From Candidatus Methylomirabilota bacterium (GTDB lineage: Bacteria > Methylomirabilota > Methylomirabilia > Rokubacteriales > CSP1-6), in assembly GCA_035709005.1 (NCBI GenBank), contig DASTFB010000132.1:97737-161736 (forward strand): a stretch of 64,000 bases of DNA. The letters run 5' to 3'. Shown here one piece after another: positions 5,323 to 32,919 of this stretch. How positions within the stretch are numbered: the stretch's first letter is position 1; each line of letters opens with the position of its first letter. Under the pieces are notes generated by a model. The model was not told the origin of the DNA, made no database searches, and saw only the letters and a program-made list of their open reading frames with translations. The translations under genes and the position numbers were made by a program.

Positions 5323-6552
5323 TCAGGCGACGCGCTCGAGCGTGACGCGGTAGCCCTGGCGCTCAAGGGTAGCGACGGCACGGCGTGCGATGCGCTGCGC
5401 ATGGCGACGGTCATAGTAGTCGGCTCCCGGTTCCTGATACGCAGTCTGTCGCGCGAGGACGTGGTAGCCGGTGACGAGGAGGGCGTGGGCGACCGCCACG
5501 ACGGCTTTCTTGTGCCCCCGATGACGCATGACGCGGCGATAGCGGGCTCCGAACGCGCTGCCCCGCATGCGGATCGCGCCCAGCGCCGCTTCGGTCAGTG
5601 CCGTCCGGAGCCAGCGATTGCCCTTCCGGGTCTTGCCGGACCTATGTTTCCCGGCGCTCTCGTTGTTGCCGGGGCACAGGCCGGCCCAGCTCGCGACGTG
5701 GGCCGCGGTCGGGAAGACGGTCATGTCCACGCCAAGCTCGGCGATGAGCACTTCAGCGGTCTGCCGGCTGATCCCCGGGATGGCGTCGAGGCGTTCGAGG
5801 GCCTCCGCGAAAGGGGCAAGGAGCTCCTCCAAATGGGCGCTCAGCGTGGCGATCGCCTCGTCAAGGTAGTCGAGGTGCGCGAGCATCTGGCCGACCAGGA
5901 AGGCGTGATGGGCGCGAAACCGCCCGGCCAGCGCCTGGCGGAGCGCTGGCAACTTCTTGCGCAGCGCCCCGCGGGCGAGGTCGGCCAACACCGCCGGATC
6001 GGTCGTGCCGTGCACGAGCCCCTCGAGCATGGCCCGGCCCGACACCCCCAGGATGTCATTCGCGACGGCGGCCAGCTTGATGCCAGCGTCCTCCAGCGTC
6101 TTGTGCAGCCGATTGGCGTGCCGGGTTCGCTCCTGGATCACCGACTTCCGGTAGCGCGTGAGGTCGCGGAGTTCACGGATCGGGGCTGGTGGCACGAAGC
6201 TTCCCCGCACGAGCCCGTGCTCCAACACCTGCGCGATCCACGCACAGTCCTGGACGTCGGTCTTTCGCCCCGGGACGTGCTTAAGGTGAGCGGCGTTGAC
6301 CAGCAGGCAAGTGAAGCCCTCCTCGAGCACGTAGTAGACCGGTTTCCAGTAGACCCCCGTGCTCTCCATCGCGACGTGCGTCACGCCCTGCGCCTCCAGC
6401 CAGTCGCGCAGCGCGAGCAGGTCGCCGGCGGTCGTGCCGAAAGTCTGGACGGTCTGGGTCCGGCGGCCACCCGGGCCGGGGGCGCGGACGCACGCCGCCA
6501 CGGTGTCCCGGTGTACATCCAGGCCGCAGCACCGCTCGATGAGCTGCTCCAT
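5323..6552 (-). CDS. IS110-family transposase (IS110 group), DEDD recombinase
   Basis: 409 aa from the ATG at 6552, which has a strong Shine-Dalgarno (aaggagg) about 8 bases upstream; the frame is open 35 codons further but without such a site. DEDD domain: CGLDVHRDT (Asp), VAMESTGVYW (Glu) and KTDVQDCAWIA (Asp pair) within the first 110 residues. The C-terminal Transposase_20 domain begins at LDAIPGISRQTAEVLIAELG and contains the conserved SGKTRKGNRWLR block. Appears intact. It is distantly related to the transposase at 379-1479. Confidence 0.93.
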   Translation of the reverse strand: MEQLIERCCGLDVHRDTVAACVRAPGPGGRRTQTVQTFGTTAGDLLALRDWLEAQGVTHVAMESTGVYWKPVYYVLEEGFTCLLVNAAHLKHVPGRKTDVQDCAWIAQVLEHGLVRGSFVPPAPIRELRDLTRYRKSVIQERTRHANRLHKTLEDAGIKLAAVANDILGVSGRAMLEGLVHGTTDPAVLADLARGALRKKLPALRQALAGRFRAHHAFLVGQMLAHLDYLDEAIATLSAHLEELLAPFAEALERLDAIPGISRQTAEVLIAELGVDMTVFPTAAHVASWAGLCPGNNESAGKHRSGKTRKGNRWLRTALTEAALGAIRMRGSAFGARYRRVMRHRGHKKAVVAVAHALLVTGYHVLARQTAYQEPGADYYDRRHAQRIARRAVATLERQGYRVTLERVA

Positions 6553-6813
6553 CTCGGCGCCTCCTTGGAGGATGTCGCCGGGGCCCGGAGGCGCGCTCTG
6601 CGCACGATTTTGCTCGGCGGGCTCGCAGCACCACTGCGGGGTTCCGAACGCGCCCACGCCAATTTCAGGCCGGACTCCGGGGTACCAAAAACCGGCGGCG
6701 TCTGCCGGACCCCGGCGCGCGGGCAGGATAGCCGATCTACATGCTGCGCGGGTGGGCGTACGGGCCCATGACTATTTCAGGCCGTGAAGCGCCAACGAAC
6801 CGATCGGCTGTTC
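6553..6813 (-). ncRNA. Candidate bridge-RNA region of the IS110-group element
   Basis: About 260 non-coding bases 5' of the transposase, where IS110-group elements transcribe their bridge RNA. It holds complementary GC-rich segments (for example accggcgg and ctgccgga around 6690-6710) and a repeated word, atttcaggccg, at 6662-6672 and 6774-6784. The RNA is inferred from family knowledge and position. Confidence 0.35.
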
Positions 6814-10386: not shown

Positions 10387-12168
10387 ATGGCATGTGATCG
10401 GTGGAACAAGCTCGTCTGCCTCGCGCTGTTCGCCGCCGTCGTCCTGGTCCTCCTGGCAACGCTCAGCGCCGGCGCGCAGGACACCACCGGGGAGCCTGCC
10501 TACCGCAGTTTCCCGGTGCTGGGCTCCCGGCTCGCCGTGTGGGCGGTGGCTCAGCTGCACCTGAACTTCGCCGCCTTCATCCTGGGCGTGCCCATCTTCG
10601 CCGTCATCATCGAGATCATCGGCTGGCGCACCCGCGACGCGCGCTACGACTGGCTGTCCCACGAGTTCGTCAAGCTCACCTTCGCCGCCTTCTCGACCAC
10701 GGCGCTGCTGGGAGCGTTGCTGCTCTTCCTCTTCGTCGGCTACTACCCGCGGTTCTGGACGTACATGACGTCCATCTTCTTCCCGACGTACTGGATCTAC
10801 GCGCTGCTGTTCTTCGCCGAGACGTTCATCGTCTACCTCTGGTACTACGGCTGGGACTGGCTGAGCGGCCCCCGGAAGTGGATTCACGTCGGTCTCGGGG
10901 TGCTGGCCAACCTGGTCGGCACCTCCATCCTCGTCGTGGCCAACTCCTGGGTGACCTTCATGATCTCCCCCGGCGGCGTGAACGAGGCGGGGCAGCTCAC
11001 CTCGCTGGGCGCGGCCATCAACAACTTCACCTGGATGCCCATCAACATCCACCGGCTGATCGCCAACATCGTGTTCGGAGGGACCATCGCCGGGGCCTAC
11101 GCGGCCTTCAAGTTCCTCTCGGCCGAGACGGACGAGGAACGAGCCCGCTACGACTGGATGGGCTACGTGGGCAATTTCGTGGCTATCTCGGCGTTCATCG
11201 TCCTGCCCTTCGCGGGCTACTGGCTGGGCCGGGAAATCTACGCCTTCAACCAGACGATGGGCATCACGATGATGGGCGGCTTCATGTCGTGGCTGTGGAT
11301 CGTGCAGGCCATCCTCATCGGCATCCTGTTCCTGGGCTCGAACTACTATCTGTGGCTGGGGATGGAGCGCATCCCCGGCTCGGAGCGCTACCGCAAGTTC
11401 GTCCCGCCGATGCTCTTCATCCTGGTCATCGGCTTCTTGATCTGGGCCACGCCGCGCTCGATGGTGGTGACGCTCGACGAGGCCCGGGCGATGGGTGGCA
11501 CCCACCACCCCATCCTCGGATTCCTCGGCGTCATGTCGGCCAAGAACACCGTGGTCAACCTGATGATCCTCACGACGTTCTTGTCGTACATCCTCTATCG
11601 GCGCGCCAACCGTATCTCCACCCGGTCGTGGGCAGGCATGGCCATGGCCGTGCAGTGGGCGGCGTTCGGCGTGGCCGCCGTCATCGTCGTGTTCTACGGT
11701 GTCTACGGCTACTTCGTGGAATCCATGGTGCGCATCGGCTTCTCGGTCTATCAGGTGCTGGCGGTGCTGGCCTGCATCGTGCTCGTCATGGCCATCGACA
11801 TCCCGCTCTTCCGCGGGGCCCGGTCCACCGGGACCATTCGCTGGGGCACGATCGCGGCCCGCTCACAGTACGTGCTGATCATTCTGGCCGTGACCTTCAC
11901 CTGGCTGATGGGACTCATGGGGTTCGCGCGCTCGGGGATCCGCCAGCACTGGCACGTGTACGGCATCCTCCGCGATACCTCTCCCGAGGCGGTCACCCCG
12001 GCCCTGGGCTATGCCGCCAACGTCATCACGGTCATCACCGTCGTGTTCTTCGCGCTGGTCATGTTCATCTTCTGGCTGGGCGGGCTCGGGGAGAAGGGCA
12101 AAGCCAAGGCTCATGGCCAGGCCGCGGCGCCGGCGATCGCCGGCGGCAGCGACGTGCGCCCCTCCTGA
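10387..12168 (+). CDS. Cytochrome bd oxidase subunit I-like (CydA-like) membrane protein
   Basis: 593 aa, about 13 predicted transmembrane segments; the family is terminal oxidases that reduce O2 at a heme b/d centre. CydA-like marks: the H58 region (AQLHLNFAAF) matches the first heme-ligand helix of CydA, and H222 (NIHRLIANIVFGG) matches the heme b558 helix. The quinol-site signature GRQPWxxYG of true CydA is replaced by IRQHWHVYG (518-526). No CydB follows; three cytochrome c genes do. It resembles the bd-like oxidases described from Nitrospira genomes and may take electrons from cytochrome c rather than quinol (inference). First gene of the 18-kb operon. Confidence 0.8.
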   Translation: MACDRWNKLVCLALFAAVVLVLLATLSAGAQDTTGEPAYRSFPVLGSRLAVWAVAQLHLNFAAFILGVPIFAVIIEIIGWRTRDARYDWLSHEFVKLTFAAFSTTALLGALLLFLFVGYYPRFWTYMTSIFFPTYWIYALLFFAETFIVYLWYYGWDWLSGPRKWIHVGLGVLANLVGTSILVVANSWVTFMISPGGVNEAGQLTSLGAAINNFTWMPINIHRLIANIVFGGTIAGAYAAFKFLSAETDEERARYDWMGYVGNFVAISAFIVLPFAGYWLGREIYAFNQTMGITMMGGFMSWLWIVQAILIGILFLGSNYYLWLGMERIPGSERYRKFVPPMLFILVIGFLIWATPRSMVVTLDEARAMGGTHHPILGFLGVMSAKNTVVNLMILTTFLSYILYRRANRISTRSWAGMAMAVQWAAFGVAAVIVVFYGVYGYFVESMVRIGFSVYQVLAVLACIVLVMAIDIPLFRGARSTGTIRWGTIAARSQYVLIILAVTFTWLMGLMGFARSGIRQHWHVYGILRDTSPEAVTPALGYAANVITVITVVFFALVMFIFWLGGLGEKGKAKAHGQAAAPAIAGGSDVRPS

Positions 12169-12966
12169 ATGCGGGTCCCGGTCGGCGTCAAGGTGGGAGC
12201 GGTCGGGCTGCTGGTCATGGGCTCGTACGCGGCCTTCAGCAATTCGATCCCCCAGATCGAATCCCGGCCGCCCCAGGAGCTGAAGCTGGAGGGGGGCAAC
12301 GTCACCCCGGCCCAGCTCGTCAAGGCCGGGCAGGAGATCTACAAGACCAAGGGCACCTGCGAGGTCTGTCACCGCATCGGCCAGAAGGGGACCCGAGCGC
12401 CCGACCTGGCCGGTATCGGGTCGCGGGCCGCCCGAGCCAAGCCGGGCGCGAGCGCCAAGCAGTACATCATCGAGTCCCTGCTGAACCCCGGCGCCGTCGT
12501 GGTCGAGGGGTACCCGCCCATCATGCCCGCAGTTGATAAGCCTCCCATCGCCCTGAACCGCTCGGAGGTGTGGGCGCTGACGGCGTTTCTGCAGTCGTTG
12601 GGCGGGACCGTCGATGTCGCGCTCAACGACATTCCCGAAACCGTCGGCGCCGGCGGCACGGCCGGTGCGGCGCCCGAGGTGAAGATTCCCGGTGACCCCA
12701 AGGCCGGCAAAGCCGTCTTCATGGGCAAGGGCGGCTGTCTGGCCTGCCACAAGGCCGGCGACGTCCCGGGCACTCCGGTCGGGCCCGATCTGTCCCAGAT
12801 CGCGCGGATCCAGACCCCCGACTACATCATGCGCAAGATCCTGGATCCCCGCGGCATGGGCACGGTGTCCGGCTTTCCGCCCGGGGTCATGCCGCCGACC
12901 TTCGGGCAGACGCTGACGGCAAAGGAGTACACGGACCTCGTGGCGTTCCTGCTCACGCTCAAATGA
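12169..12966 (+). CDS. Membrane-anchored diheme cytochrome c
   Basis: 265 aa. N-terminal hydrophobic anchor/signal (about 5-25), then two cytochrome c domains with CEVCH and CLACH heme sites and distal methionines (for example PPIMP and GVMPP). The ATG directly follows the preceding TGA. It is a periplasmic electron carrier, most likely a redox partner or subunit of the CydA-like protein encoded just upstream, or of the aa3 oxidase further down. Which one cannot be told from sequence. Confidence 0.88.
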   Translation: MRVPVGVKVGAVGLLVMGSYAAFSNSIPQIESRPPQELKLEGGNVTPAQLVKAGQEIYKTKGTCEVCHRIGQKGTRAPDLAGIGSRAARAKPGASAKQYIIESLLNPGAVVVEGYPPIMPAVDKPPIALNRSEVWALTAFLQSLGGTVDVALNDIPETVGAGGTAGAAPEVKIPGDPKAGKAVFMGKGGCLACHKAGDVPGTPVGPDLSQIARIQTPDYIMRKILDPRGMGTVSGFPPGVMPPTFGQTLTAKEYTDLVAFLLTLK

Positions 12967-13712
12967 GCTTCCTGCGGTCCCGCTTCGTCCAGGCGGTCCT
13001 CATCCTGGTCCTGGCGGCCGTGCTCCTGCGCTATGGCATCCGGCCGCCCGCGCCCTGGAGCGTGTTCACGCTCTACATGGCCATCGTCTTCATGGGCGTG
13101 CTCGTCTTCGTGTCCGCCGACGCCGACTCCTGGCGCAGCTTCGTCCGTCCGCTATGGTCCGTGCTGGTCGACCGCGACAAGCGCTACCTCCGGTATGGCC
13201 TGATGATCGTGATCCCGCTGCTGCTCGGCTACTACGCGTACACGCAGGCGGCGGCCAGGCCGCAGGCCCCCCCCGAGCTGCGGGCCGTGCATCCGGCGCC
13301 GCCCGATTCGATCGACCTTCGCGGCAAGCCGTTCAACATCTCGGGCGCCGAGAACCCGTTGCGCAAGGACCAGGCGAGCTACGCCACGCACGTCGCCGCG
13401 GGGGCGGCGATCTACTTCCGCAATTGCATGTACTGCCACGGCGACAACCTGGACGGCCAGGGCCACTTCGCCCCGGGCTTCAATCCGCCGCCCGCGAACT
13501 TCCAGGACCCCGGCACGATCGCCATGCTCCAGGAAGCCTACCTGTTCTGGCGCATCGCCAAGGGCGGCCCCGGGCTGCCCAGCGAGTCGACGCCCTGGAA
13601 CTCGGTCATGCCCGCCTGGGAGGACCGCCTCACCGAGGAGCAGATGTGGCAGGTCATCATGTTCCTGTACGACTTCACGGGTCAGCAACCCCGGCGATGG
13701 GAGTCGCATTGA
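12963..13712 (+). CDS. Multi-pass monoheme cytochrome c
   Basis: 249 aa. Three hydrophobic segments in the first 100 residues (about 8-25, 35-50 and 78-95) are followed by a periplasmic class I cytochrome c domain with a single heme site CMYCH and a likely distal Met in NSVMPAWE. It overlaps the preceding gene by 4 bases. The polytopic N-terminus suggests a fixed subunit of a membrane complex rather than a free carrier; partner by position is the CydA-like oxidase. Confidence 0.85.
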   Translation: MSFLRSRFVQAVLILVLAAVLLRYGIRPPAPWSVFTLYMAIVFMGVLVFVSADADSWRSFVRPLWSVLVDRDKRYLRYGLMIVIPLLLGYYAYTQAAARPQAPPELRAVHPAPPDSIDLRGKPFNISGAENPLRKDQASYATHVAAGAAIYFRNCMYCHGDNLDGQGHFAPGFNPPPANFQDPGTIAMLQEAYLFWRIAKGGPGLPSESTPWNSVMPAWEDRLTEEQMWQVIMFLYDFTGQQPRRWESH

Positions 13713-13730
13713 TGCTCTCGCGGGCGGCTC

Positions 13731-13799
13731 GGGGGGCGAAATGGAGTGGGGGGGCGATATGGAGCTGGGGGGCCCCGAAATGGCCCCCCAGACCCCCCC
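13731..13799. repeat. 18-bp tandem repeats with a nested hairpin
   Basis: Three units begin with gggggg at 13731, 13749 and 13767 (ggggggcgaaatggag, ggggggcgatatggag, ggggggccccgaaatgg). A perfect 10-bp hairpin, ctggggggcc (13765-13774) with ggccccccag (13782-13791), sits inside; outer G7/C7 runs (13748-13754, 13793-13799) extend it. It lies between two cytochrome c genes. The period of 18 keeps the frame open, but translation is doubtful. Confidence 0.6.
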
Positions 13800-13819
13800 G
13801 TTCACGCGGCGATCGAGCC

Positions 13820-15277
13820 ATGGGCTCGATCGCGCTGGCTACCGCCGTGATTGCATGGCTGCTGGCGGTTCCCGCGATGGCGGTCGCCCAGAAGGGCGAT
13901 GCGGCGGCCGGCAAGGCGGTCTACGATCGCAAGTGCGCCGGTTGCCATGGCGTCAAGGGCGACGGCAGCGGGCCGGCCGCCGAGCTGCTGATGCCGCGGC
14001 CGCGGGACTTCACGTCGGGCGTCTACAAGGTCCGCTCGACGGTGAACCGGGTTCCCACCGACCAGGACATCTTCCGGACCATCACCGATGGCATGCCGGG
14101 CACCTCGATGCCGGGCTGGGCGGCGCTTCCCGAGCAGGATCGCTGGAACCTCGTCGCTTACATCAAGAGCTTCGCCGGGGACAAGCTGCAGGAGGCGCCC
14201 AGGAAGGCCGAGCTCCCGCCGGACGTCTCCCCGTCGCCGGCGTCTCTGGCGCGGGGCAAGGAGATGTTCGAGGCGATCGAGTGCCACAAGTGCCACGGCG
14301 TGGAGGGGCGCGCGGACGGCGTCTCCCGGGCCGAGCTGAAGGACGATTGGGGTCATCCCGTGAAGCCCGCCAACCTGAGCAAGCGGTGGACCTTCCGGGG
14401 TGGCGCCGGGCGAGTGGACGTGGCCATGCGCATGGCGGTGGGCGTGCTGGGCACGCCCATGCCGGCCTTCCTCGATGCCGTCGAGAAACCCGAGGACATC
14501 TGGCACGTCACCAACTACGTGCTGTCGCTGGGCCCCGAGGCGCCGCGCTACGCAACCCTCATCACGGTGGGCGCGGTGTCGGACGCGATTCCCGACGATC
14601 CGGCGGCCGACCTCTGGCGCACGATGGCCGGCCAGTCCATCCCGCTGATGGGGCAGGTGATCGTCGATCCTCGCAACTTCAATCCCGCTATCGACATGAT
14701 CACCGTCCGCGCCGTCTACAACGAGCGAGAGATCGCGTTCCACCTCACCTGGGATGATCCGACGCCGTCGAAGCCGGACGGCAAGGAGACCTTCGCCGAC
14801 GCCGTCTCGCTGCAGTTTCCTCCGGCGGCGGCGCCGGGCGGCGTGCGTCCCTATTTCCTGATGGGGGACGCGTCGGACGCTGTCTACCTGCTGCGCTGGC
14901 AGAGTGATCAGGGCGTGCTGGAGGTCGCGGCCAACGGGCCCACCAAGCGGCGCGCCCTGACCGGCGGCGAAGTCAGCGGCCGGGCCGTCTTCGACAACGG
15001 CCAGTACCGCGTCGTGATGAAGCGGTCGTTGGCCGCCAAGGACGCCGAACGGATCACGTTTCGGCCGGCCGAGTTCGCTCCCATCGCCTTTCAGGCGTGG
15101 GAGGGGGGCGCCGGGGAGACCGGGGCTCGGATGTCCCTGACATCGTGGTACTATCTGCGGCTGGAGGAGCCCCGGTCGAACGCTCGTTTCGTGGTACCAC
15201 CCGTGGTGGCACTTCTCGCGCTGGGCGGCATGCTGCTCATCGTTTGGGCGGCGAACCGGCGCGGTCAACCTGCATAG
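13820..15277 (+). CDS. Diheme cytochrome c fused to an ethylbenzene-dehydrogenase-type heme domain
   Basis: 485 aa. Signal peptide (1-23), cytochrome c domain with CAGCH (39-43), second with CHKCH (155-159), then a domain of about 200 residues (about 245-450) resembling the heme-binding gamma subunit of ethylbenzene dehydrogenase, and a C-terminal membrane helix (about 460-480). That beta-sandwich fold normally holds a b-type heme by Met/Lys ligation, so the protein could carry three hemes. Start chosen at 13820 because it opens on a clean signal peptide; an in-frame ATG at 13712 overlaps the previous stop but would translate the tandem repeat. Confidence 0.82.
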   Translation: MGSIALATAVIAWLLAVPAMAVAQKGDAAAGKAVYDRKCAGCHGVKGDGSGPAAELLMPRPRDFTSGVYKVRSTVNRVPTDQDIFRTITDGMPGTSMPGWAALPEQDRWNLVAYIKSFAGDKLQEAPRKAELPPDVSPSPASLARGKEMFEAIECHKCHGVEGRADGVSRAELKDDWGHPVKPANLSKRWTFRGGAGRVDVAMRMAVGVLGTPMPAFLDAVEKPEDIWHVTNYVLSLGPEAPRYATLITVGAVSDAIPDDPAADLWRTMAGQSIPLMGQVIVDPRNFNPAIDMITVRAVYNEREIAFHLTWDDPTPSKPDGKETFADAVSLQFPPAAAPGGVRPYFLMGDASDAVYLLRWQSDQGVLEVAANGPTKRRALTGGEVSGRAVFDNGQYRVVMKRSLAAKDAERITFRPAEFAPIAFQAWEGGAGETGARMSLTSWYYLRLEEPRSNARFVVPPVVALLALGGMLLIVWAANRRGQPA

Positions 15278-15323
15278 TGTGGCCAGTTCATTCGTCCGAT
15301 GGACGAAGGGAGGTAGGCACGTG

Positions 15324-16022
15324 ATGCGCAGAGCATGGGTAGCATGTGCGGCGCTCGCCGTCATCGCCGGCGCGGCGATCCTGGGAGGCCAGCTCGCCCC
15401 CGCCACCGCCCAGGGCGGCGGCACCGTCGAGGTCGAGGTGAAGTACAACGGCGCCCCCGTCATCGAGAAGCTGAAGGTCAACAAGGACACCCAGGTGTGC
15501 GGGACCGAAGCCCTGGTGGAGAAGGTGGTGGTGGGATCCAACAAGGGGCTGGCGAACGCCGTGGCCTCGGTGCCCACCGCCAAGGGCGAGGCCAAGGCGG
15601 TCAAGGCCGTCATCGACCAGAAGGGCTGCAAGTTCGTTCCCCACGTCGTCGTTATGACGCCCGGGGACCTCGAGATCAAGAACTCGGATGGCGTGCTGCA
15701 CAACATCCATACGTACTCGACCGCCAATCCCCCCATCAACAAGGCCCAGCCCAAGTTCAAGAAGGTGATGACGGAGAAGTTCGCGAAGCCCGAGGTCGTC
15801 AAGGTCACCTGCGACGTCCACAGCTGGATGCTCGGCTGGGTGGCCGTGGTGCCCACCCCCTTCTTCGGGGTCACCAGCGAGAGCGGCGTGGCCAAGATCG
15901 ACAACGTGCCGGCGGGCAAGCACAAGGTCGAGGTCTGGCACGAGACGCTGGGCAAGCAAACCAAGGACGTCGAGGTGAAAGCCGGGCAGACGGCCAAGGT
16001 CAGCTTCGAGATGAAGAAGTAG
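15324..16022 (+). CDS. Exported cupredoxin-like protein, paralogue 1
   Basis: 232 aa from ATG 15324 (GTG 15321 also possible); Shine-Dalgarno aagggagg at 15307-15314. Signal peptide (about 1-25). The core carries HN in GVLHNIHTY and then CDVHSWM, giving a full His, Cys, His, Met type 1 copper set as in plastocyanin. Two further cysteines (VCGTE, KGCKF) could form a disulfide. The C-terminal part looks like a carboxypeptidase regulatory/transthyretin-like fold (IDNVPAGKHKVEVW). Sited directly before ctaC, it is likely a periplasmic electron carrier or copper donor for the CuA site. Paralogue at 22834-23736. Confidence 0.75.
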   Translation: MRRAWVACAALAVIAGAAILGGQLAPATAQGGGTVEVEVKYNGAPVIEKLKVNKDTQVCGTEALVEKVVVGSNKGLANAVASVPTAKGEAKAVKAVIDQKGCKFVPHVVVMTPGDLEIKNSDGVLHNIHTYSTANPPINKAQPKFKKVMTEKFAKPEVVKVTCDVHSWMLGWVAVVPTPFFGVTSESGVAKIDNVPAGKHKVEVWHETLGKQTKDVEVKAGQTAKVSFEMKK

Positions 16023-22837: not shown

Positions 22838-23736
22838 GGGTAGTCGCGGAGAAGGGACGTTGCGACTCTGACCACGTGAGCGAGCGTCCGGTGCGGGTCA
22901 TTCCGGCGGGGCACGGGCGTGGCGCTAGCCCGGGTGCCCGTGCCCTGTTCAATAGACGGACGCTCGCCCGCCTGACGAGAGTCGTGACTGCGGTTCTTGC
23001 GCTTGCATTCTTTGCGACGCCCGTGGCTGCGGCGTACGAGGAGATCGCGGTGCCGGACGGGGCAACCGTCAGCGGCGTCGTGCGCTTCGTGGGGACGCCG
23101 CCCAGGCTGGAGCCGATCCGGGTCAACAAGAACCGCGAGGTGTGCGGCACGTCGAAGGACTCGGAGGCGCTGATGGTCGGCCCGACCGGGGGCGTGCAGG
23201 GCAGCGTGATCCGGATCGAAGGGATCGCCCGGGGCAAGAAGCCGGACGGCGAGCTTCTCATCGACAATCACAGATGCCTGTTCGTGCCTCACGTGAGCGC
23301 TCTCATGGCCGGCACCCGGGCCCGGGTGCGGAACTCGGACCCGGTCCTGCACAACACGCACGGCTTCCACACGGTGGGCGCCGGCCGGCAGACGGTATTC
23401 AACCTGGCCTTGCCCAGCGCGGGCCAGGTGATCGACATCACGAGAAAGCTCACGAAGCCCGGTCCCGTGCGGGTCCTGTGCGACGCGCACCCCCACATGT
23501 TCGCCTGGGTCTACGTCCACACCACCCCCTACGTCGCGATCAGCGACGCGCGAGGCGCGTACCGCATCGACGGCGTGCCCGCGGGCACGTACCGCGTCAC
23601 GATGTGGCACGAAGGCTTCCGGCCCACGGCGGTCGACAAGGACGGTCGCCCCGTCTACGACGAGCCCAGGGTCACCACCAAAGAGGTCACGGTCGCACCG
23701 GGCGCCACGGCGACGGTCGATTTTGAATTGAAGTAG
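22834..23736 (+). CDS. Exported cupredoxin-like protein, paralogue 2
   Basis: 300 aa from ATG 22834 (overlap with DUF983). The first 45 residues are basic and the signal helix only begins near 48, so a later start is possible. Matches paralogue 1 at conserved blocks: VCGTS near the start, LFVPHV, NSDPVLHNTHG and CDAHPHMFAWVYVHTTPY, again giving a His, Cys, His, Met copper set. C-terminal regulatory-like fold (IDGVPAGTYRVTMWHEGFRP). Two such paralogues bracket the oxidase genes; both probably act in the periplasm in copper or electron transfer. Confidence 0.72.
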   Translation: MRVVAEKGRCDSDHVSERPVRVIPAGHGRGASPGARALFNRRTLARLTRVVTAVLALAFFATPVAAAYEEIAVPDGATVSGVVRFVGTPPRLEPIRVNKNREVCGTSKDSEALMVGPTGGVQGSVIRIEGIARGKKPDGELLIDNHRCLFVPHVSALMAGTRARVRNSDPVLHNTHGFHTVGAGRQTVFNLALPSAGQVIDITRKLTKPGPVRVLCDAHPHMFAWVYVHTTPYVAISDARGAYRIDGVPAGTYRVTMWHEGFRPTAVDKDGRPVYDEPRVTTKEVTVAPGATATVDFELK

Positions 23737-23753: not shown

Positions 23754-25652
23754 ATGTACAGGCACATTTACGTTCCCGTCGACAACTCCGAGCACTCCAA
23801 TCGGGCGATCGACCTCGCCGTGGAGCTGGGGCAGGCGCTGGGAGCGCGGCTGACCGGCTGTCACGTCTACGCGGCCCGCCTGCACGATTACCGCTTCAAA
23901 CAGATGGAGTACACGCTGCCCGAGGAGTACAAGGACGAGCAGGAGCTGGAGCGGCAGCGCAGGATTCACGACTCGCTGATCGCCATGGGCCTGCAACTCA
24001 TCTCCGACTCCTACCTCGACGTCATGGCCAACAAGGCCCGGGCGGCCGGCCTGGCCTTCGCGGCCAAGACCTTCGACGGCAAGCACTACAAGGCGCTGAT
24101 CGACGACGCCACCGCCTCCGACTACGACCTGGTCATCATGGGCGCCCTGGGCATGGGCGCCGTCAAGGACAGCCAGCTGGGATCGGTCACCGAACGATTC
24201 GTGCGCCGCATCGCGACCGATACCCTGGTCGTCCGCAATCACGACGCCCTGCGCGACCAGCAGGGGGCCATCGTGGTGGGGCTCGACGGCTCGCCGCAGT
24301 CCTTCCAGGGCCTCAAGATCGGCATCGCCTTGGCCAAGGCGCTGGGGCGGCCCCTGCAGGCCGTCGCCGTCTACGACCCCTATCTGCACTACGCCATGTT
24401 CAACGGCATCGTGGGCGTCCTGAGCGAGAAGGCGTCCAAGATCTTCCGCTTCAAGGAGCAGGAGCAGCTGCACGAGGAAATCATCGATACGGGTCTGGCC
24501 AAGATCTATCAGTCGCATCTGGAGATCGGCCGGAAGCTGGCCGCGGACGAGGCGGTCGATCTGGGAATCACCCTGCTCGACGGCAAGTGCTTCGAGAAGA
24601 TCTTGACCTACGCCCGCAAGGAGCAGCCCTGGCTGCTCATCCTCGGGCGGATCGGGGTGCATTCCGACGAGCAGGAGCTCGAGCTGGGCTCCAACACCGA
24701 GAACCTCCTGCGCCTGGCCCCCTGCAACGTCCTGCTCACGGGCGGGCGGTTCTATCCGCCGCTCGACGTCAAGGCCGAGGAGATCATCGCCTGGACCGAG
24801 GAGGCGGAAGCCCGGATGGAGCGGGTCCCGCCCCAGGTCAAGGGTGTCGCTCGTACGGCCCTGCTCCGGTACGCCATCGAGCAGGGACACACGGTGATCA
24901 CCAACAAGGTCATCGACGAGGCCATGGCCATCTTCATGCCCACCCGCATGGCCGAGAAGATGCAGATCCTGGCCGAGGACGTGGCCGTGGCCCGGCTTCG
25001 CGCCGACCAGGCCGCGGTGACGGCCATCTGCTCGGTGTGCGGCTACACCGTCAAGGGGCCTAACCCGGTGGTGAGCTGTCCGGTGTGTCGGGCCACGGCC
25101 GACAGGTTCCAGGTCGTCTCCCGCGAGGTCGTGGAAGCCATCGCCTCGCAGGAGGGCGGCGTCGAAGAGGAGGAGTCGCTGCCCGGTGTGGCGGTGAAGT
25201 GGTCCGCCGATGCCCGCGACGCCCTTCGGGAGGTCGCCGACGCCTACCTGCGCCGGCGAGCCAAGGCCCGCGTCGAGAAGTACGCGCGCTCCAAGAGGAT
25301 CCCCGTCATCACGTGCGCACTGGCCCTGCCCCTGATCGAGGATACCGTCGGCCGCGACAAGCTGGGCGCTGGCTGGGATACGTTGCTGGCCAAGACCCGG
25401 TTCGAGCCGGCCGAGGCGCCGGCGCCGGGCCAGCCCGGCGCCTTCGTGTGGACGGAAGACGCCACGGCCCGGCTCAATCGCGTGCCCGCCGGCTTCATGC
25501 GCGACATGACGCGCGAGGAGATCGAGAAGGTCGCCGTCGCCAAAGGCGTCGGCGCGATCGATCTGGCCCTGTGCGAGGAAGGCATCGGCCACGCGCGCCA
25601 GCTGATGAACGAGGTCATCGCCGGATACGTCTCCACCAAGACGCCCCGCTGA
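23754..25652 (+). CDS. Tandem UspA protein with zinc site and three PCP_red domains
   Basis: 632 aa, cytoplasmic. Two universal-stress-protein folds (about 1-155 and 168-335; GALGMGAVKDSQLGSVTERF is the nucleotide-loop region of the first). Then PCP_red domain 1 (about 343-392), a rubredoxin-like four-cysteine site (C426, C429, C442, C445), PCP_red 2 (481-530) and PCP_red 3 (564-612). PCP_red is named after the 57-kDa subunit of protochlorophyllide reductase; no chlorophyll genes are here. The next gene also ends in a PCP_red domain, which implies a shared partner or cofactor. Shine-Dalgarno caggaggggg precedes the ATG. Role unknown. Confidence 0.78.
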   Translation: MYRHIYVPVDNSEHSNRAIDLAVELGQALGARLTGCHVYAARLHDYRFKQMEYTLPEEYKDEQELERQRRIHDSLIAMGLQLISDSYLDVMANKARAAGLAFAAKTFDGKHYKALIDDATASDYDLVIMGALGMGAVKDSQLGSVTERFVRRIATDTLVVRNHDALRDQQGAIVVGLDGSPQSFQGLKIGIALAKALGRPLQAVAVYDPYLHYAMFNGIVGVLSEKASKIFRFKEQEQLHEEIIDTGLAKIYQSHLEIGRKLAADEAVDLGITLLDGKCFEKILTYARKEQPWLLILGRIGVHSDEQELELGSNTENLLRLAPCNVLLTGGRFYPPLDVKAEEIIAWTEEAEARMERVPPQVKGVARTALLRYAIEQGHTVITNKVIDEAMAIFMPTRMAEKMQILAEDVAVARLRADQAAVTAICSVCGYTVKGPNPVVSCPVCRATADRFQVVSREVVEAIASQEGGVEEEESLPGVAVKWSADARDALREVADAYLRRRAKARVEKYARSKRIPVITCALALPLIEDTVGRDKLGAGWDTLLAKTRFEPAEAPAPGQPGAFVWTEDATARLNRVPAGFMRDMTREEIEKVAVAKGVGAIDLALCEEGIGHARQLMNEVIAGYVSTKTPR

Positions 25653-25677
25653 GCGCCGGGGGCCGGACGCGACGCCG

Positions 25678-27000
25678 ATGACGACCGGCGGCGAGCCCTA
25701 CACCGCCTACAGCGTGTCCTGGAACCTCACGCAGCGGTGCAATCTGGAGTGCGCCCATTGCTACATGTCGGCCTTCGCCGGGGCCGACACGCGGGCCGAG
25801 CTCACCACCGCCGAGTGCCGGCGCGTCATCGATGGGATCGCCCAGGTCAATCCCAACGTCTTCTTGATCCTCACCGGAGGCGAGCCGCTCCTGCGCAAGG
25901 ATCTCTGGGAGATCGCCGCCTGGGCCGCCGAGCGCCGCTTCACCACGGTGCTCGGCACCAACGGCGTCCTGCTGCGGGAGCGGGAGGCCGCGCTCATGCG
26001 CCAGCACGGGGTGCTGGGTGCCTCGATCAGCCTGGACTCCACCGTTGCCGCTCGGCACGACGCTTTTCGCCACCTTCCCGGCGCCTGGCAGGGGGCCGTG
26101 CGGGCCACGCGCATCTTGCGCGAGGCCGGTCTGGACTTCTCGCTGCATATGTCCGTGACCGACTGGAACGTGAGCGAGGTGCCGGCGATGATCGACCTGG
26201 CGCGCGAGCTCGGGGCCCGGGTGCTGAACTTCTTCTTCCTGGTCAGGACCGGGCGGGGCCAGAGCCTCAGCGACATCGACGCCGGCGAGTACGAGCGAAT
26301 CCTGGCGTACCTGGCCAGGGTCCAGGATGCGGGAGCGGGCGAGCGCTTCGAGGATCCCTGGTCCACGCCGGTTGGCCGGGCCGACGGGCTGCTGATCCGG
26401 GCGAAGTGCGCGCCACACTTCCGGCGGATCCTCTGGGAGCGCAACCCCCAATCGCCGTTCTTGAAGAACTACGCCCACGGCTCCTGCCCGGCGGGCAAGT
26501 ACTACTGCCGGATCACCCCCGAGGGCGACGTCACCCCCTGCCCGTACATGCCGGTGGCCGTCGGCAACCTGCGCCGCACGTCGTTCGCCGAGCTGTGGCG
26601 ATCGGCGCCGGTGTTCGCCGATCTCCGGGAACCCAGGCTGGGCGGTCGTTGCGGGGCGTGCGAATTCACCAAGCTCTGCGGGGGATGCCGGTGTCGCGCC
26701 TACGCGACGTACGGCGACTATCTGGCCGAGGATCCCGCCTGCGCCTACCAGCCCGGCGCCCACGGCAGCCAGGTGATCGAGCTGCCGGCCACGCTGACCT
26801 TCGGGCTGCCGGTAGCCTACGAGCTCGTCTGGGAAGAGGCCGCGCGGGCTCGGCTCCAGGCGATCCCGTCATTCGCCCGGGGCATGGTCGCGAGGGCCAT
26901 CGAAGCCTATGCCCGTCGCCGCGGCGAGGCCATCATCACTCCCGCGCTGCTCGCTGACGCGCGGGACCAGTGGGGCGCTCGATTCCGCCCACGGGCCTAG
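25678..27000 (+). CDS. Radical SAM/SPASM protein with C-terminal PCP_red domain
   Basis: 440 aa. Radical SAM cluster C21, C25, C28 (CNLECAHC), SAM motif GGEP (67-70), SPASM-type auxiliary cysteines between about 244 and 355 (including C270, C277, C288, C325, C328, C334, C337, C339, C355), then PCP_red (about 383-430, WEEAARARLQAIPSFARG). The layout resembles the NirJ/AhbC/AhbD enzymes that remodel heme side chains, but the exact reaction is not readable. Beside heme A genes and a UspA-PCP_red protein it may tailor a porphyrin or a metal cofactor (inference). Confidence 0.8.
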   Translation: MTTGGEPYTAYSVSWNLTQRCNLECAHCYMSAFAGADTRAELTTAECRRVIDGIAQVNPNVFLILTGGEPLLRKDLWEIAAWAAERRFTTVLGTNGVLLREREAALMRQHGVLGASISLDSTVAARHDAFRHLPGAWQGAVRATRILREAGLDFSLHMSVTDWNVSEVPAMIDLARELGARVLNFFFLVRTGRGQSLSDIDAGEYERILAYLARVQDAGAGERFEDPWSTPVGRADGLLIRAKCAPHFRRILWERNPQSPFLKNYAHGSCPAGKYYCRITPEGDVTPCPYMPVAVGNLRRTSFAELWRSAPVFADLREPRLGGRCGACEFTKLCGGCRCRAYATYGDYLAEDPACAYQPGAHGSQVIELPATLTFGLPVAYELVWEEAARARLQAIPSFARGMVARAIEAYARRRGEAIITPALLADARDQWGARFRPRA

Positions 27001-27476
27001 ATCGGGCCGCGCCCCACGGTCCCGCGCTCGCCGTCGAGCGGCGGTTCAGGGCGGCCGCCCGCGCCTACGGCCTCTATGGAGTGGTGTACCTCGTCGGGGG
27101 GCTCTATCTGATCGCCCACGGGGTGGGAGTGGCCGGAGCTCGGGCAGGCGCGCCGGCCGTTCCCACCATGCTCTACTGGGGCGGGATCGGCCTCGTCCCG
27201 CTCATCCTCATCCCGTTGCTTCTGTGGCGCCGGTGGTCGTGGTTCGGGGGATGGGTGTCGCGGCGGACCTTCGCCTGGCTGGTCGCGGTCCTGCTCGCCG
27301 TACGCGCGTTCAAGGTGGCGGAGGTGGTCCTGGGTGGCGGGGGCACGGTGCCCGCCCCCTGGGGAGGCGAGATCTCGTTTCGCACCGGCGGCGTGGTGTT
27401 CTTGACTGTCACGCTGATGGCGCTCGCGTTCGTCGTGCGTGCCGCCTGGCCGCACACCGCGGGAGGCGACCGGTGA
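26970..27476 (+). CDS. Small four-helix membrane protein, hypothetical
   Basis: 168 aa from GTG 26970, overlapping the radical SAM gene by 31 bases; the true start may be later. Four hydrophobic segments (about 34-52, 65-85, 100-118 and 138-158) with short charged loops. No family recognised. Its stop overlaps the GTG of the Mrp gene, so it is part of the operon. Confidence 0.6.
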   Translation: MGRSIPPTGLDRAAPHGPALAVERRFRAAARAYGLYGVVYLVGGLYLIAHGVGVAGARAGAPAVPTMLYWGGIGLVPLILIPLLLWRRWSWFGGWVSRRTFAWLVAVLLAVRAFKVAEVVLGGGGTVPAPWGGEISFRTGGVVFLTVTLMALAFVVRAAWPHTAGGDR

Positions 27477-28327
27477 AAAGGTATCGAGACATCGCAGGCG
27501 ACGGGGGTTCGGGCGTCGCCGGGCAGGTGCGCGAGCAGCAAGAGCGGATGCGCCGTCGTCTCGCCACCGTCAGTCACGTCCTCGCCGTCGTGTCGGGGAA
27601 GGGGGGCGTGGGCAAGTCGACGCTGACGGGGGCTCTCGCCTGCGCGCTGGCTCTGTCCGGCTGGCGCGTGGGGGTGCTGGACGCCGATCTGAACGGCCCC
27701 ACGATGGCGAAGATCCTGGGGGTGCGCGGCCGGCGCCTGACGATCGCCGGCGACGCCGTGGCGCCGCCGGTCTCCGCGCTGGGCGTCAAGGTGATGTCGA
27801 TGGATCTCTTGCTGCCCTCCGACGCGGCGCCGCTAGCCTGGCGCGCGCCCACCCAGGCCGAGGCGCATACGTGGCGGGGCGCCATGGAAGCCCAGGCGCT
27901 GCGGGAGTTTCTGGCGGACACCGATTGGGGGCTGCTCGACGTGCTCCTGGTCGACCTGCCGCCGGGTACCGATCGCCTCGCCACGGTGACGTCGCTGGTG
28001 CCCATGTCGGGCACAGTGGTGATCACGATCCCTTCCGACCTTTCCCAGTTCGTGGTGCGCAAGGCGATCACGGTGGCCAGGGACGCCGGCGCTCCGGTGC
28101 TGGGCCTCATCGAGAACATGGCCGGCCTCTTTCCCGGGCCTGACGCGTCCGCTATGGCAGGTGAGGCGGGAATCCCGTTTCTGGGCAGCGTCCCCTTCGA
28201 CCGGGCGTTGGCTCTGGCGGCTGACCGTGGCGACCCGCTGGTGGCCGAGCCTCCACACGGCGAGGGGGCTCAAGCCATGGCCGCCATCGCAGCTCGGGTG
28301 CGCGAGGCGCTGACGCTACAGTCCTGA
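27473..28327 (+). CDS. mrp: Mrp/NBP35-family P-loop ATPase
   Basis: 284 aa, GTG start overlapping the preceding stop (GTGA). Deviant Walker A GKGGVGKST near residue 41-49, then DADLNGPTM and DLPPGTDR. The family carries or inserts iron-sulfur clusters; the CxxC seen near the C-terminus of many Mrp proteins is absent here. As the last gene of the operon it could load Fe-S clusters into the radical SAM enzyme. It converges on the next gene, with a 12-base overlap of the 3' ends. Confidence 0.85.
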   Translation: MKRYRDIAGDGGSGVAGQVREQQERMRRRLATVSHVLAVVSGKGGVGKSTLTGALACALALSGWRVGVLDADLNGPTMAKILGVRGRRLTIAGDAVAPPVSALGVKVMSMDLLLPSDAAPLAWRAPTQAEAHTWRGAMEAQALREFLADTDWGLLDVLLVDLPPGTDRLATVTSLVPMSGTVVITIPSDLSQFVVRKAITVARDAGAPVLGLIENMAGLFPGPDASAMAGEAGIPFLGSVPFDRALALAADRGDPLVAEPPHGEGAQAMAAIAARVREALTLQS

Positions 28328-31601: not shown

Positions 31602-32621
31602 TCACAGGGCGACGCGTCGGCGTGCGCGCATGGCCTCGGCGCCCAGCGTCACGTTCGACCACACGGCGATCAGCGAGCGCATCAGCAACGCCCGCACCTC
31701 GCCCCGGCCGATCTTGATCGGGGCCGTCGCCCCCACCGGATCGGCATGGGCGGCCAGCTCGCGAAGGGTTCCCAGCCCGATCAGCAGCGGCCAGGCGCAC
31801 GCCAGGCGCATCCGCCACTCCAGGCGGGGGACGGCCAGCGTGTATTGCCAGGCGGCCTCGTAATGCGACAGCGCCAGGCCCAGCAGCCGGCGCACCAGCG
31901 GACGGGCGCGGCGTGTCGCCTCGGGATCGAGCAGATCACGGGGAGCGAGCCCCAGGGATTTCAGCTCGCAGGCCGGCAGGTAACAGCGGCCGCTGCGCAG
32001 GTCGGCGGGGACATCACGGAGGATGTTGGTGAGCTGCAGGGCCTTGCCGAAGCGGACGGCCTGCGCCTGCATCGCCGCCAGATCCCAGTGGCGCAGGCGG
32101 GGGCGATGGGCGGCGTGAAGCGCCGTCCAGAACGGGCCCACGCACCCGGCGATCAGGTAGGTGTAGCGGTCGAGCTCTTCCATGGTTTCCAGCGCCGCCA
32201 CCGCGCCGGCGTCCTCCCCGGGAAAGCGCGTCAGGTCGAAGACCATGCCACTGGTCAGGGTCGCCAGCACGCCGCGGACCTGCTCGCGGTCCGCGGGCGG
32301 GAGCCGCTGCAGCCGAGCGACGGCTTCCTCGACGCGCTCGAGCAACAGTCGCTCGGCCCCGTAGGGCCTGTGCGGGGCGCAGGCCCGGCTGACCGCGGCG
32401 ACCTCGGTGGCCTCTCCCGCGTACGCCCGGCGCAGGTGCTCCAGGTGTTCGAGACGGTCCTCGCAGGGAATCAACCGGGTGTCGGCCACGCTGTCGGCGG
32501 CCCGGGCCAGGAGGTACGCGAGACCGATCGGCTCGCGCAGCGCCGCGGGAAGAATGGCAAGCGAGAGATAGAAGCTCCGGCTGACCTGCCGCAGAAGGCC
32601 GCGGAGCAGGTCGTCGGACAT
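31602..32621 (-). CDS. Squalene/phytoene synthase family protein (probable squalene synthase)
   Basis: 339 aa, ATG 32621. Head-to-head condensation of prenyl diphosphates. First Asp-rich motif ARAADSVADT near 40, second QLTNILRDVPADLRSG near 195-212, SRSFYLSLAILP at the start and YTYLIAGCVGPF, which is squalene-synthase-like. Length and the full C-terminal helix favour an NADPH-using squalene synthase over HpnC/HpnD, but the product is not certain. No other hopanoid gene is nearby. It follows the zinc-ribbon gene by 1 base. Confidence 0.85.
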   Translation of the reverse strand: MSDDLLRGLLRQVSRSFYLSLAILPAALREPIGLAYLLARAADSVADTRLIPCEDRLEHLEHLRRAYAGEATEVAAVSRACAPHRPYGAERLLLERVEEAVARLQRLPPADREQVRGVLATLTSGMVFDLTRFPGEDAGAVAALETMEELDRYTYLIAGCVGPFWTALHAAHRPRLRHWDLAAMQAQAVRFGKALQLTNILRDVPADLRSGRCYLPACELKSLGLAPRDLLDPEATRRARPLVRRLLGLALSHYEAAWQYTLAVPRLEWRMRLACAWPLLIGLGTLRELAAHADPVGATAPIKIGRGEVRALLMRSLIAVWSNVTLGAEAMRARRRVAL

Positions 32622-32622
32622 G

Positions 32623-32919
32623 CTAGTCGTGGTCGAAGGGTCTCCGCGGGGGGGCGGGGTCGTCCTTGGCCTTCTTGAGGCTTTCCTGGAACTTGCGGTC
32701 GAGCACCTTGGACTTCTGGGCTTCCGCCTCCATCTGCTGCCGGAAGCGCTCCTCCCGCTGGGCCGCGCGCGCGTCCAGGGCACCGAGTGCCGTGTCCAGG
32801 TCGGCCAGGGCTCGCTTGCGCGGCGGCTCCTCGTGCGCGATGACGGCCTTGAGCTCGGGATCGATCGTGAGCCGACCCCCGCAGCACGGGCAACTCACGA
32901 CGAAGGACGCGGCCGCCAT
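32623..32919 (-). CDS. Zinc-ribbon protein, hypothetical
   Basis: 98 aa. An N-terminal CPCCGG knuckle (residues 10-15) and a charged, probably coiled-coil remainder (about 40-90, rich in Glu, Lys, Arg and Gln). Only one cysteine cluster is present, so zinc would need a second chain. Directly upstream of the squalene synthase and divergent from the nuclease gene. Function unknown. Confidence 0.65.
   Translation of the reverse strand: MAAASFVVSCPCCGGRLTIDPELKAVIAHEEPPRKRALADLDTALGALDARAAQREERFRQQMEAEAQKSKVLDRKFQESLKKAKDDPAPPRRPFDHD

What the first reader, a model, noticed from the sequence alone, without database searches (positions are those of the whole stretch)
23754..27000. Two adjacent proteins of different folds share PCP_red domains
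A tandem UspA protein carries three PCP_red domains and a four-cysteine zinc/rubredoxin-like site; the next gene is a radical SAM/SPASM enzyme ending in one more PCP_red domain. The domain is named for protochlorophyllide reductase, but nothing photosynthetic is here. Both lie behind heme A synthesis and oxidase genes and before an Mrp Fe-S ATPase. This looks like an undescribed cofactor or heme-tailoring module, with PCP_red as the shared docking or binding part and UspA as a nucleotide-sensing part.
Basis: partly seen in the sequence, partly recalled or inferred. Interest (0 to 1): 0.68.

Follow-up and report, generated by a model that had tools for sequence, protein, structure and literature searches.

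The report
Chlorophyll-enzyme domains in a respiratory module
Soil and groundwater bacteria that do not photosynthesise carry a conserved set of three proteins built around a small domain named after a chlorophyll enzyme, and these proteins occur almost only in genomes that also have a poorly understood cytochrome-bd-like respiratory complex, so they probably help to build that complex, perhaps by making or loading a special heme.

Summary
Gene 23754-25652 encodes two Usp domains, three PCP_red domains and a rubredoxin-like Cys4 site. Gene 25678-27000 encodes a radical SAM/SPASM enzyme ending in one more PCP_red domain. Homology to the BchB C-terminus was confirmed independently of Pfam.

The pair is not a local oddity: 53 of 95 Methylomirabilota genomes have both genes and 34 have neither. 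A third PCP_red protein (163 aa, two CxxC pairs) belongs to the set; it lies on another contig here, but next to the others in many relatives.

The best partner is not the heme-copper oxidase in front of the genes (COX1 is in 92 of 95 genomes). It is the "bd-like oxidase"/cytochrome c/heme-b complex at 10387-15277. Its CydA-like subunit is present in 56 of 59 genomes with the third protein, and in the same 2 of 241 myxobacterial genomes as Usp-PCP. This is the enigmatic complex type reported in Nitrospira, Nitrospina and anammox bacteria.

The radical SAM protein is a separate clade beside heme synthase AhbD and shares its cysteine motifs. Best reading: a dedicated cofactor (probably heme) maturation module for that complex. 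The genetic link is strong; the chemistry is inferred. The Mrp ATPase here has lost its Fe-S CxxC motif.

The parts
23754..25652 (+). UspPCP protein (632 aa): Usp1 - Usp2 - PCP_red - rubredoxin-like Cys4 - PCP_red - PCP_red
24792..24923 (+). PCP_red domain 1 of UspPCP
   Evidence: (44.5 bits)
25029..25109 (+). rubredoxin-like Cys4 site (C426, C429, C442, C445)
   Evidence: RUBY_RBDX 34.7 bits; nearly invariant
25200..25319 (+). PCP_red domain 2 of UspPCP (weak alone)
   Evidence: (29.4 bits, below cut-off)
25449..25577 (+). PCP_red domain 3 of UspPCP
   Evidence: 42.4 bits
25678..27000 (+). rSAM-PCP protein (440 aa): radical SAM (CX3CX2C at C21/C25/C28), SPASM (C325-X2-C328-X5-C334-X20-C355), C-terminal PCP_red
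26830..26964 (+). PCP_red domain of rSAM-PCP
   Evidence: 51.6 bits
26970..27476 (+). small membrane protein of the module (about 4 hydrophobic segments), family conserved in the cluster; start uncertain
   Evidence: no Pfam family
27473..28327 (+). Mrp/NBP35-type P-loop ATPase without the CxxC Fe-S motif
10387..12168 (+). CydA-like 'bd-like oxidase' membrane subunit (593 aa, PF01654 in its N-terminal half): proposed partner
12169..12966 (+). di-heme cytochrome c of the bd-like unit
12963..13712 (+). cytochrome c of the bd-like unit
13820..15277 (+). two cytochrome c domains plus ethylbenzene-dehydrogenase-type heme b domain (alt-NxrC-like)
15279..16022 (+). CarboxypepD_reg protein of the bd-like unit, paralogue of 23023-23736
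23023..23736 (+). CarboxypepD_reg protein with a weak COX2-cupredoxin match, directly in front of UspPCP

Best explanation
Window 23754-28327 plus the unlinked ZnPCP gene form a dedicated cofactor-maturation and assembly module for the bd-like/cytochrome c/EB_dh respiratory complex encoded at 10387-15277. Proposed mechanism: rSAM-PCP, a distinct sister lineage of AhbD/TIGR04053, carries out a radical modification of an iron-tetrapyrrole. [quoted passage not shown] UspPCP is an ATP-binding multi-PCP scaffold whose rubredoxin-like site can take or give an electron. ZnPCP and the Mrp-like ATPase help delivery to the membrane complex. Shown: the domains, conservation, operon order, co-occurrence with the bd-like subunit and the intact cysteine and ATP motifs. 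Inferred: that the substrate is a heme, that PCP_red binds it, and the direction of delivery.
For: Co-occurrence in 95 genomes of the phylum: UspPCP 58, rSAM-PCP 56, ZnPCP 59, bd-like 59; bd-like with ZnPCP 56 both and 33 neither (Fisher 1e-18), bd-like with rSAM-PCP 51 both and 31 neither. Inside patchy families the genes come together: only G005 of 7 in f5, G008/G013/G014 of 7 in f6, and mainly G028/G029 among 15 in f10. In the window's own genome ZnPCP is on another contig, and within that family it still follows bd-like (45 both, 7 neither, 5 discordant; p 1e-5). Independent lineage: of 241 genomes of a myxobacterial class, UspPCP is in exactly 2 and bd-like in exactly the same 2, on different contigs. 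21 of 22 UspPCP-bearing genomes found by the genome scan outside the main Rokubacteria group have bd-like. Where both are on one contig they lie 3.7-13.8 kb apart in 26 genomes; they are close neighbours in L106-L108, L117, L119 and in Chloroflexi. rSAM-PCP is one clade (98/97), beside AhbD plus TIGR04053 with AhbC outside, and has the AhbD motif CX2CX5CX20C. PCP_red homology to BchB.
Against: No unusual heme is known in bd-like complexes. The genome has a HemE, ferrochelatase and protoporphyrinogen oxidase cluster, so ordinary heme is probably made without rSAM-PCP. No rSAM-PCP gene lies beside UspPCP in the Chloroflexi, Planctomycetota or Tectomicrobia loci seen, so the enzyme is not shown to go with the scaffold everywhere. 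Some genomes break the rule: G010, G016, G023, G036, G076, G077, G078 have module genes and no bd-like hit; G057 and G089 the reverse. Genomes are incomplete and related, and genes of one island are inherited together, so Fisher values overstate the evidence. PCP_red binding a pigment in isolation is not shown.
Confidence: 0.5

Rival explanations
1. Same partner, different chemistry: PCP_red is a protein-protein docking domain and rSAM-PCP modifies an amino acid side chain or peptide of the bd-like complex or its cytochromes, as PqqE or anSME act on peptides.
For: Solved structures nearest to the model are peptide-acting SPASM enzymes PqqE, SuiB, SkfB and anSME. Three different proteins share PCP_red, which suits docking. 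PCP_red also exists alone (Asr4154).
Against: In sequence the enzyme is far closer to NirJ2/AhbD (297-299 bits) than to PqqE (118 bits) or other peptide maturases. No AhbD or NirJ structure turned up among the solved relatives, so the fold match is biased. No small precursor-peptide gene was noticed between the genes.
Confidence: 0.2
2. rSAM-PCP is simply the organism's coproheme-to-heme b enzyme (an AhbD equivalent in a coproporphyrin-type pathway) and the module serves general heme supply.
For: AhbD-like sequence and motif; the best HemN-like protein of the genome is HemW, not HemN; several module-bearing genomes have no ferrochelatase hit (G016, G018, G029).
Against: It is a clade apart from true AhbD of the same phylum (L166, 520 bits, above cut-off). 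Close relatives without the module (G056, G060, G069) have ferrochelatase and COX1 and must make heme otherwise. The distribution follows bd-like, not heme use.
Confidence: 0.15
3. The module is a redox or energy-stress regulator: UspPCP senses ATP and redox state and switches the bd-like complex or oxidase, with no biosynthetic role.
For: Usp domains with intact ATP motifs; rubredoxin-like site; Usp proteins rise strongly at low oxygen in Nitrospira marina (PMC8115632; those are not shown to be this family).
Against: Does not explain the radical SAM enzyme with both cluster motifs intact, nor the shared BchB-type domain.
Confidence: 0.08
4. Genomic hitchhiking: the module and the bd-like genes travel as one island without working together.
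For: They are often within 14 kb, and islands are gained and lost whole.
Against: ZnPCP is on a separate contig in the window's genome and still co-occurs with bd-like across the family; in the two myxobacteria the genes are on different contigs; neighbours otherwise differ between phyla.
Confidence: 0.07

Closest known systems
DPOR subunit BchB/ChlB C-terminal domain (PF08369; 2KRU, 2XDQ, 3AEK) and standalone Asr4154 (2L09)
   Same: Clear sequence homology of the 45-residue domain over its whole length.
   Different: No nitrogenase-like body; here the domain is attached to Usp, radical SAM and a two-CxxC protein, up to five copies in one chain. All PCP_red hits of the genome lie in these three genes.
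AhbD heme b synthase (TIGR04545), NirJ2 (TIGR04055), TIGR04053 radical SAM/SPASM proteins
   Same: Radical SAM plus SPASM with CX3CX2C and CX2CX5CX20C; best profile scores.
   Different: Scores well under the curated cut-offs (297-299 against 500; 257 against 395), a separate clade, and an added PCP_red domain.
bd-like oxidase / alt-NxrC / cytochrome c cluster of Nitrospira, Nitrospina and Kuenenia (PMC3578206, PMC6606698)
   Same: Same make-up of the partner complex: CydA-like long membrane protein, c-type cytochromes, cytochrome c with EB_dh heme b domain.
   Different: Known by description only here; sequences of those organisms could not be compared, and no NXR genes were sought. A putative zinc-finger protein is reported in that cluster; whether it is ZnPCP is unknown.
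Tandem universal stress proteins (TTHA0350 3AB8, Rv2623)
   Same: Two Usp domains, ATP motifs kept, fold match TM 0.80 on the target.
   Different: Each Usp domain carries a long, highly conserved inserted helix (about 62-97 and 233-265), followed by PCP_red and rubredoxin-like parts.

Membership tests
PCP_red (PF08369) | Profile match above the curated cut-off | tested here: met
   Three of four segments pass singly, the middle one of UspPCP scores 29.4 against 32.5; both proteins pass as wholes
DPOR (BchLNB) | PCP_red at the end of a nitrogenase-like BchB | tested here: not met
   All PCP_red hits of the genome are in UspPCP, rSAM-PCP and ZnPCP
AhbD heme b synthase (TIGR04545) | Score above the curated equivalog cut-off (500) | tested here: not met
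   296.8 bits; separate clade
AhbD heme b synthase (TIGR04545) | CX3CX2C and CX2CX5CX20C cysteine motifs | tested here: met
   C21/25/28 and C325/328/334/355, all invariant in 13 sequences; motif from PMC3942049
AhbD heme b synthase (TIGR04545) | Conversion of Fe-coproporphyrin III to heme | not testable with these tools
   needs an enzyme assay
NirJ / heme d1 pathway | Score above the cut-off for NirJ or NirJ2 | tested here: not met
   198.9 of 515 and 299.3 of 500
Universal stress protein, ATP-binding type | G-x2-G-x9-G-S/T motif in each domain | tested here: met
   G130..G133..G143-S144, glycines invariant and S144 nearly so; second domain G298..G301..G312-S with 9-10 residues between
Rubredoxin-like domain (PF21349) | Four cysteines and score above cut-off | tested here: met
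   34.7 against 26.5 bits; lost or weak in some relatives (L119, L045)
Mrp/ApbC Fe-S carrier | C-terminal CxxC cluster motif | tested here: not met
   Absent in window and most Rokubacteria loci, present in Mrp of other lineages of the module
Canonical cytochrome bd oxidase | Full-length CydA match | tested here: not met
   Only profile positions 2-243 of 418 match; about 12 hydrophobic segments
bd-like oxidase of nitrite oxidisers | CydA-like long protein clustered with c-cytochromes and an EB_dh-type protein | tested here: met
   description from PMC3578206 and PMC6606698
bd-like oxidase of nitrite oxidisers | Direct sequence kinship with the Nitrospira, Nitrospina or Kuenenia proteins | not tested
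   those genomes could not be reached with the scans left

The most novel reading that the evidence does not exclude
PCP_red is a general tetrapyrrole-handling domain independent of chlorophyll synthesis, and this three-protein module makes and delivers an undescribed modified heme (for example a chlorin- or AhbD/NirJ-type product) required by bd-like respiratory complexes, including those of nitrite oxidisers and anammox bacteria.
Probability: 0.25. Interest if true: 0.9.

Novelty: new variant of a known kind. Interest (0 to 1): 0.62.

Why it matters
The bd-like complex is repeatedly called enigmatic in nitrite oxidisers and anammox bacteria, and in Nitrospira moscoviensis its genes are among the 40 most strongly transcribed (PMC3578206, PMC6606698). 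A dedicated maturation module would be a first handle on its cofactors and a concrete reason why it might not assemble in a foreign host. It would also give a function to a BchB-type domain outside photosynthesis, and add a radical SAM clade next to AhbD. A practical point: PF08369 is used as a marker to pre-screen genomes for chlorophototrophy (PMC12815261), yet 64 of 95 Methylomirabilota genomes hit it; in the window's genome every hit is in this module.

Tried and rejected
Oxidase partner: rejected because COX1 is in 92 of 95 genomes and the module in about 58. Simple AhbD assignment: rejected on scores and tree. DPOR or photosynthesis remnant: no PCP_red protein with a nitrogenase-like part in the genome. 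Mobile element: no match covering most of the protein on 72,556 plasmids; the best are Usp proteins at about 25% identity, mostly haloarchaeal. Searches of the paper library for PCP_red, PF08369 and 'PCP reductase family' found no description of the module. Comparison with HemN_C was uninformative because the own-genome hit is HemW. My first gene calls picked shadow ORFs in the GC-rich oxidase region and were redone with a model trained on known genes.
Full report
WHAT IS THERE. The two genes lie at the stated coordinates, 25 bases apart, on the + strand. The first encodes 632 aa: two Usp domains, a PCP_red domain, a rubredoxin-like Cys4 site, and two more PCP_red domains. The second encodes 440 aa: radical SAM, SPASM and a C-terminal PCP_red domain. 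Three of the four PCP_red segments pass the Pfam cut-off alone; the middle one of the Usp protein is weaker (29.4 against 32.5 bits). A profile built from the module's own segments retrieves the BchB/ChlB C-termini and the standalone Asr4154 from the PDB, and nothing else of note, so the homology does not rest on one Pfam model. Behind them follow a small membrane protein and an Mrp-type ATPase, overlapping by a few bases, so the set looks like one operon.

THIRD MEMBER. The genome holds exactly five PCP_red hits: four in the two genes and one on another contig, in a 163-aa protein with two CxxC pairs at its N-terminus. I call it ZnPCP; the metal is not known. In other lineages this gene sits behind Mrp or near it in the same cluster (L041, L102, L104, L107, L108, L117, L119, L062), so it belongs to the module.

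DISTRIBUTION. Nearest relatives are Candidatus Rokubacteria (80-87% identity), with homologues in Chloroflexi, Planctomycetota, Tectomicrobia, Thermoanaerobaculia and Myxococcales. In 95 Methylomirabilota genomes UspPCP is found in 58, rSAM-PCP in 56, ZnPCP in 59; 50 have all three and 31 have none. The number of PCP_red domains varies: five in the Chloroflexi protein, two in some others.

PARTNER. COX1 is in 92 of 95 genomes, so the oxidase does not explain who has the module. Upstream of that operon (10387-15277) lies a CydA-like long membrane protein, two c-type cytochromes, and a protein with two cytochrome c domains and an ethylbenzene-dehydrogenase-type heme b domain. The CydA-like subunit is in 59 of 95 genomes and matches the module almost one to one: 56 genomes with it and ZnPCP, 33 with neither, 6 discordant. 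In families where the trait is patchy the same few genomes are positive. ZnPCP is on another contig in the window's genome and yet follows the CydA-like gene within that family (45 both, 7 neither, 5 discordant). In a myxobacterial class, 241 genomes, UspPCP is in two and the CydA-like protein in the same two, on different contigs. Of 22 further UspPCP genomes from the contig scan, 21 also have it. Within contigs the distance is 3.7-13.8 kb in 26 genomes. Fisher values overstate this, because the genomes are related and some are incomplete; the unlinked ZnPCP and the myxobacterial case are the parts that do not depend on linkage.

WHAT THE PARTNER IS. A protein with partial similarity to CydA, c-type cytochromes and an EB_dh-type 'alt-NxrC' is what the nitrite-oxidiser literature calls the cytochrome bd-like oxidase cluster, conserved in Nitrospira, Nitrospina and Kuenenia, of unknown function, perhaps an alternative complex III (PMC3578206; PMC6606698). 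Across the loci read here the order bd-like, cytochrome c, cytochrome c-EB_dh is kept in several phyla. One relative has a second copy beside an arsenite-oxidase-like molybdopterin protein, which suits a role in passing electrons between periplasmic oxidations and the chain.

CHEMISTRY. rSAM-PCP scores best with NirJ2, AhbD and TIGR04053 but far below their cut-offs. On a tree with AhbD, TIGR04053 and AhbC proteins from the same phylum it is one clade (98/97) beside AhbD plus TIGR04053. It keeps the radical SAM cysteines, the GGEP motif and the auxiliary-cluster motif CX2CX5CX20C reported for AhbD and NirJ. The genome also has HemE, ferrochelatase and protoporphyrinogen oxidase in one cluster, so heme b is probably made by a standard route; relatives without rSAM-PCP also have ferrochelatase. 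I therefore read it as a specialised, not a housekeeping, tetrapyrrole enzyme. That its substrate is a tetrapyrrole is inference from kinship and from the BchB-type domain.

USPPCP. Both Usp domains keep the ATP-binding glycines, and the model resembles ATP-bound TTHA0350 (TM 0.80 on the target). Each domain has a long inserted helix, nearly invariant in sequence across phyla; to my knowledge that is unusual for Usp. The rubredoxin-like site is conserved in most but lost or weak in a few relatives. An ATP-dependent scaffold that carries several PCP_red copies and one electron-transfer site is the simplest reading.

MRP. The window's Mrp-like protein lacks the CxxC motif of Fe-S carriers of this family, as do most Rokubacteria loci examined, while Mrp of the other lineages has it. 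It is better described here as an Mrp-type ATPase of unknown cargo.

JUDGEMENT. Certain: the domains and the conserved module. Strong: the tie to the bd-like complex. Open: the chemistry. I give 0.5 to cofactor (probably heme) maturation for that complex as stated, with rivals at 0.2 (peptide or protein modification), 0.15 (general heme supply), 0.08 (regulator) and 0.07 (hitchhiking). No paper in the searched library describes the module.

Noticed in passing
window 27473-28327: The Mrp-like ATPase has lost the CxxC motif in the window's lineage, while Mrp proteins of the same cluster in other lineages (L041, L062, L102, L104, L106-L108, L117, L120) keep it.
   Followed up: partly
L148 (448-5694) and L137 (1908-7395): A second bd-like copy sits beside an arsenite-oxidase-like molybdopterin protein in L148, and a bd-like unit beside an iron-sulfur protein resembling the ActB subunit of alternative complex III in L137.
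   Followed up: partly
phylum-wide PF08369 hits: PF08369 is used as a pre-screening marker for chlorophototrophy (PMC12815261), but most Methylomirabilota genomes hit it, in the window's genome only through this module.
   Followed up: no
G071, G084, G088: These genomes have ZnPCP and the bd-like subunit but no clear full-length UspPCP or rSAM-PCP at the thresholds used, so ZnPCP may have a role of its own.
   Followed up: partly
L051 and other Chloroflexi loci: UspPCP of Chloroflexi has five PCP_red domains (about 840 aa) and no rSAM-PCP gene beside it; the bd-like genes there stand with Rieske and cytochrome b genes.
   Followed up: partly
window 5323-6657 (-): IS110-type transposase gene upstream of the respiratory region.
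   Followed up: no
window 31602-32783 (-): Squalene/phytoene synthase gene downstream of the module.
   Followed up: no
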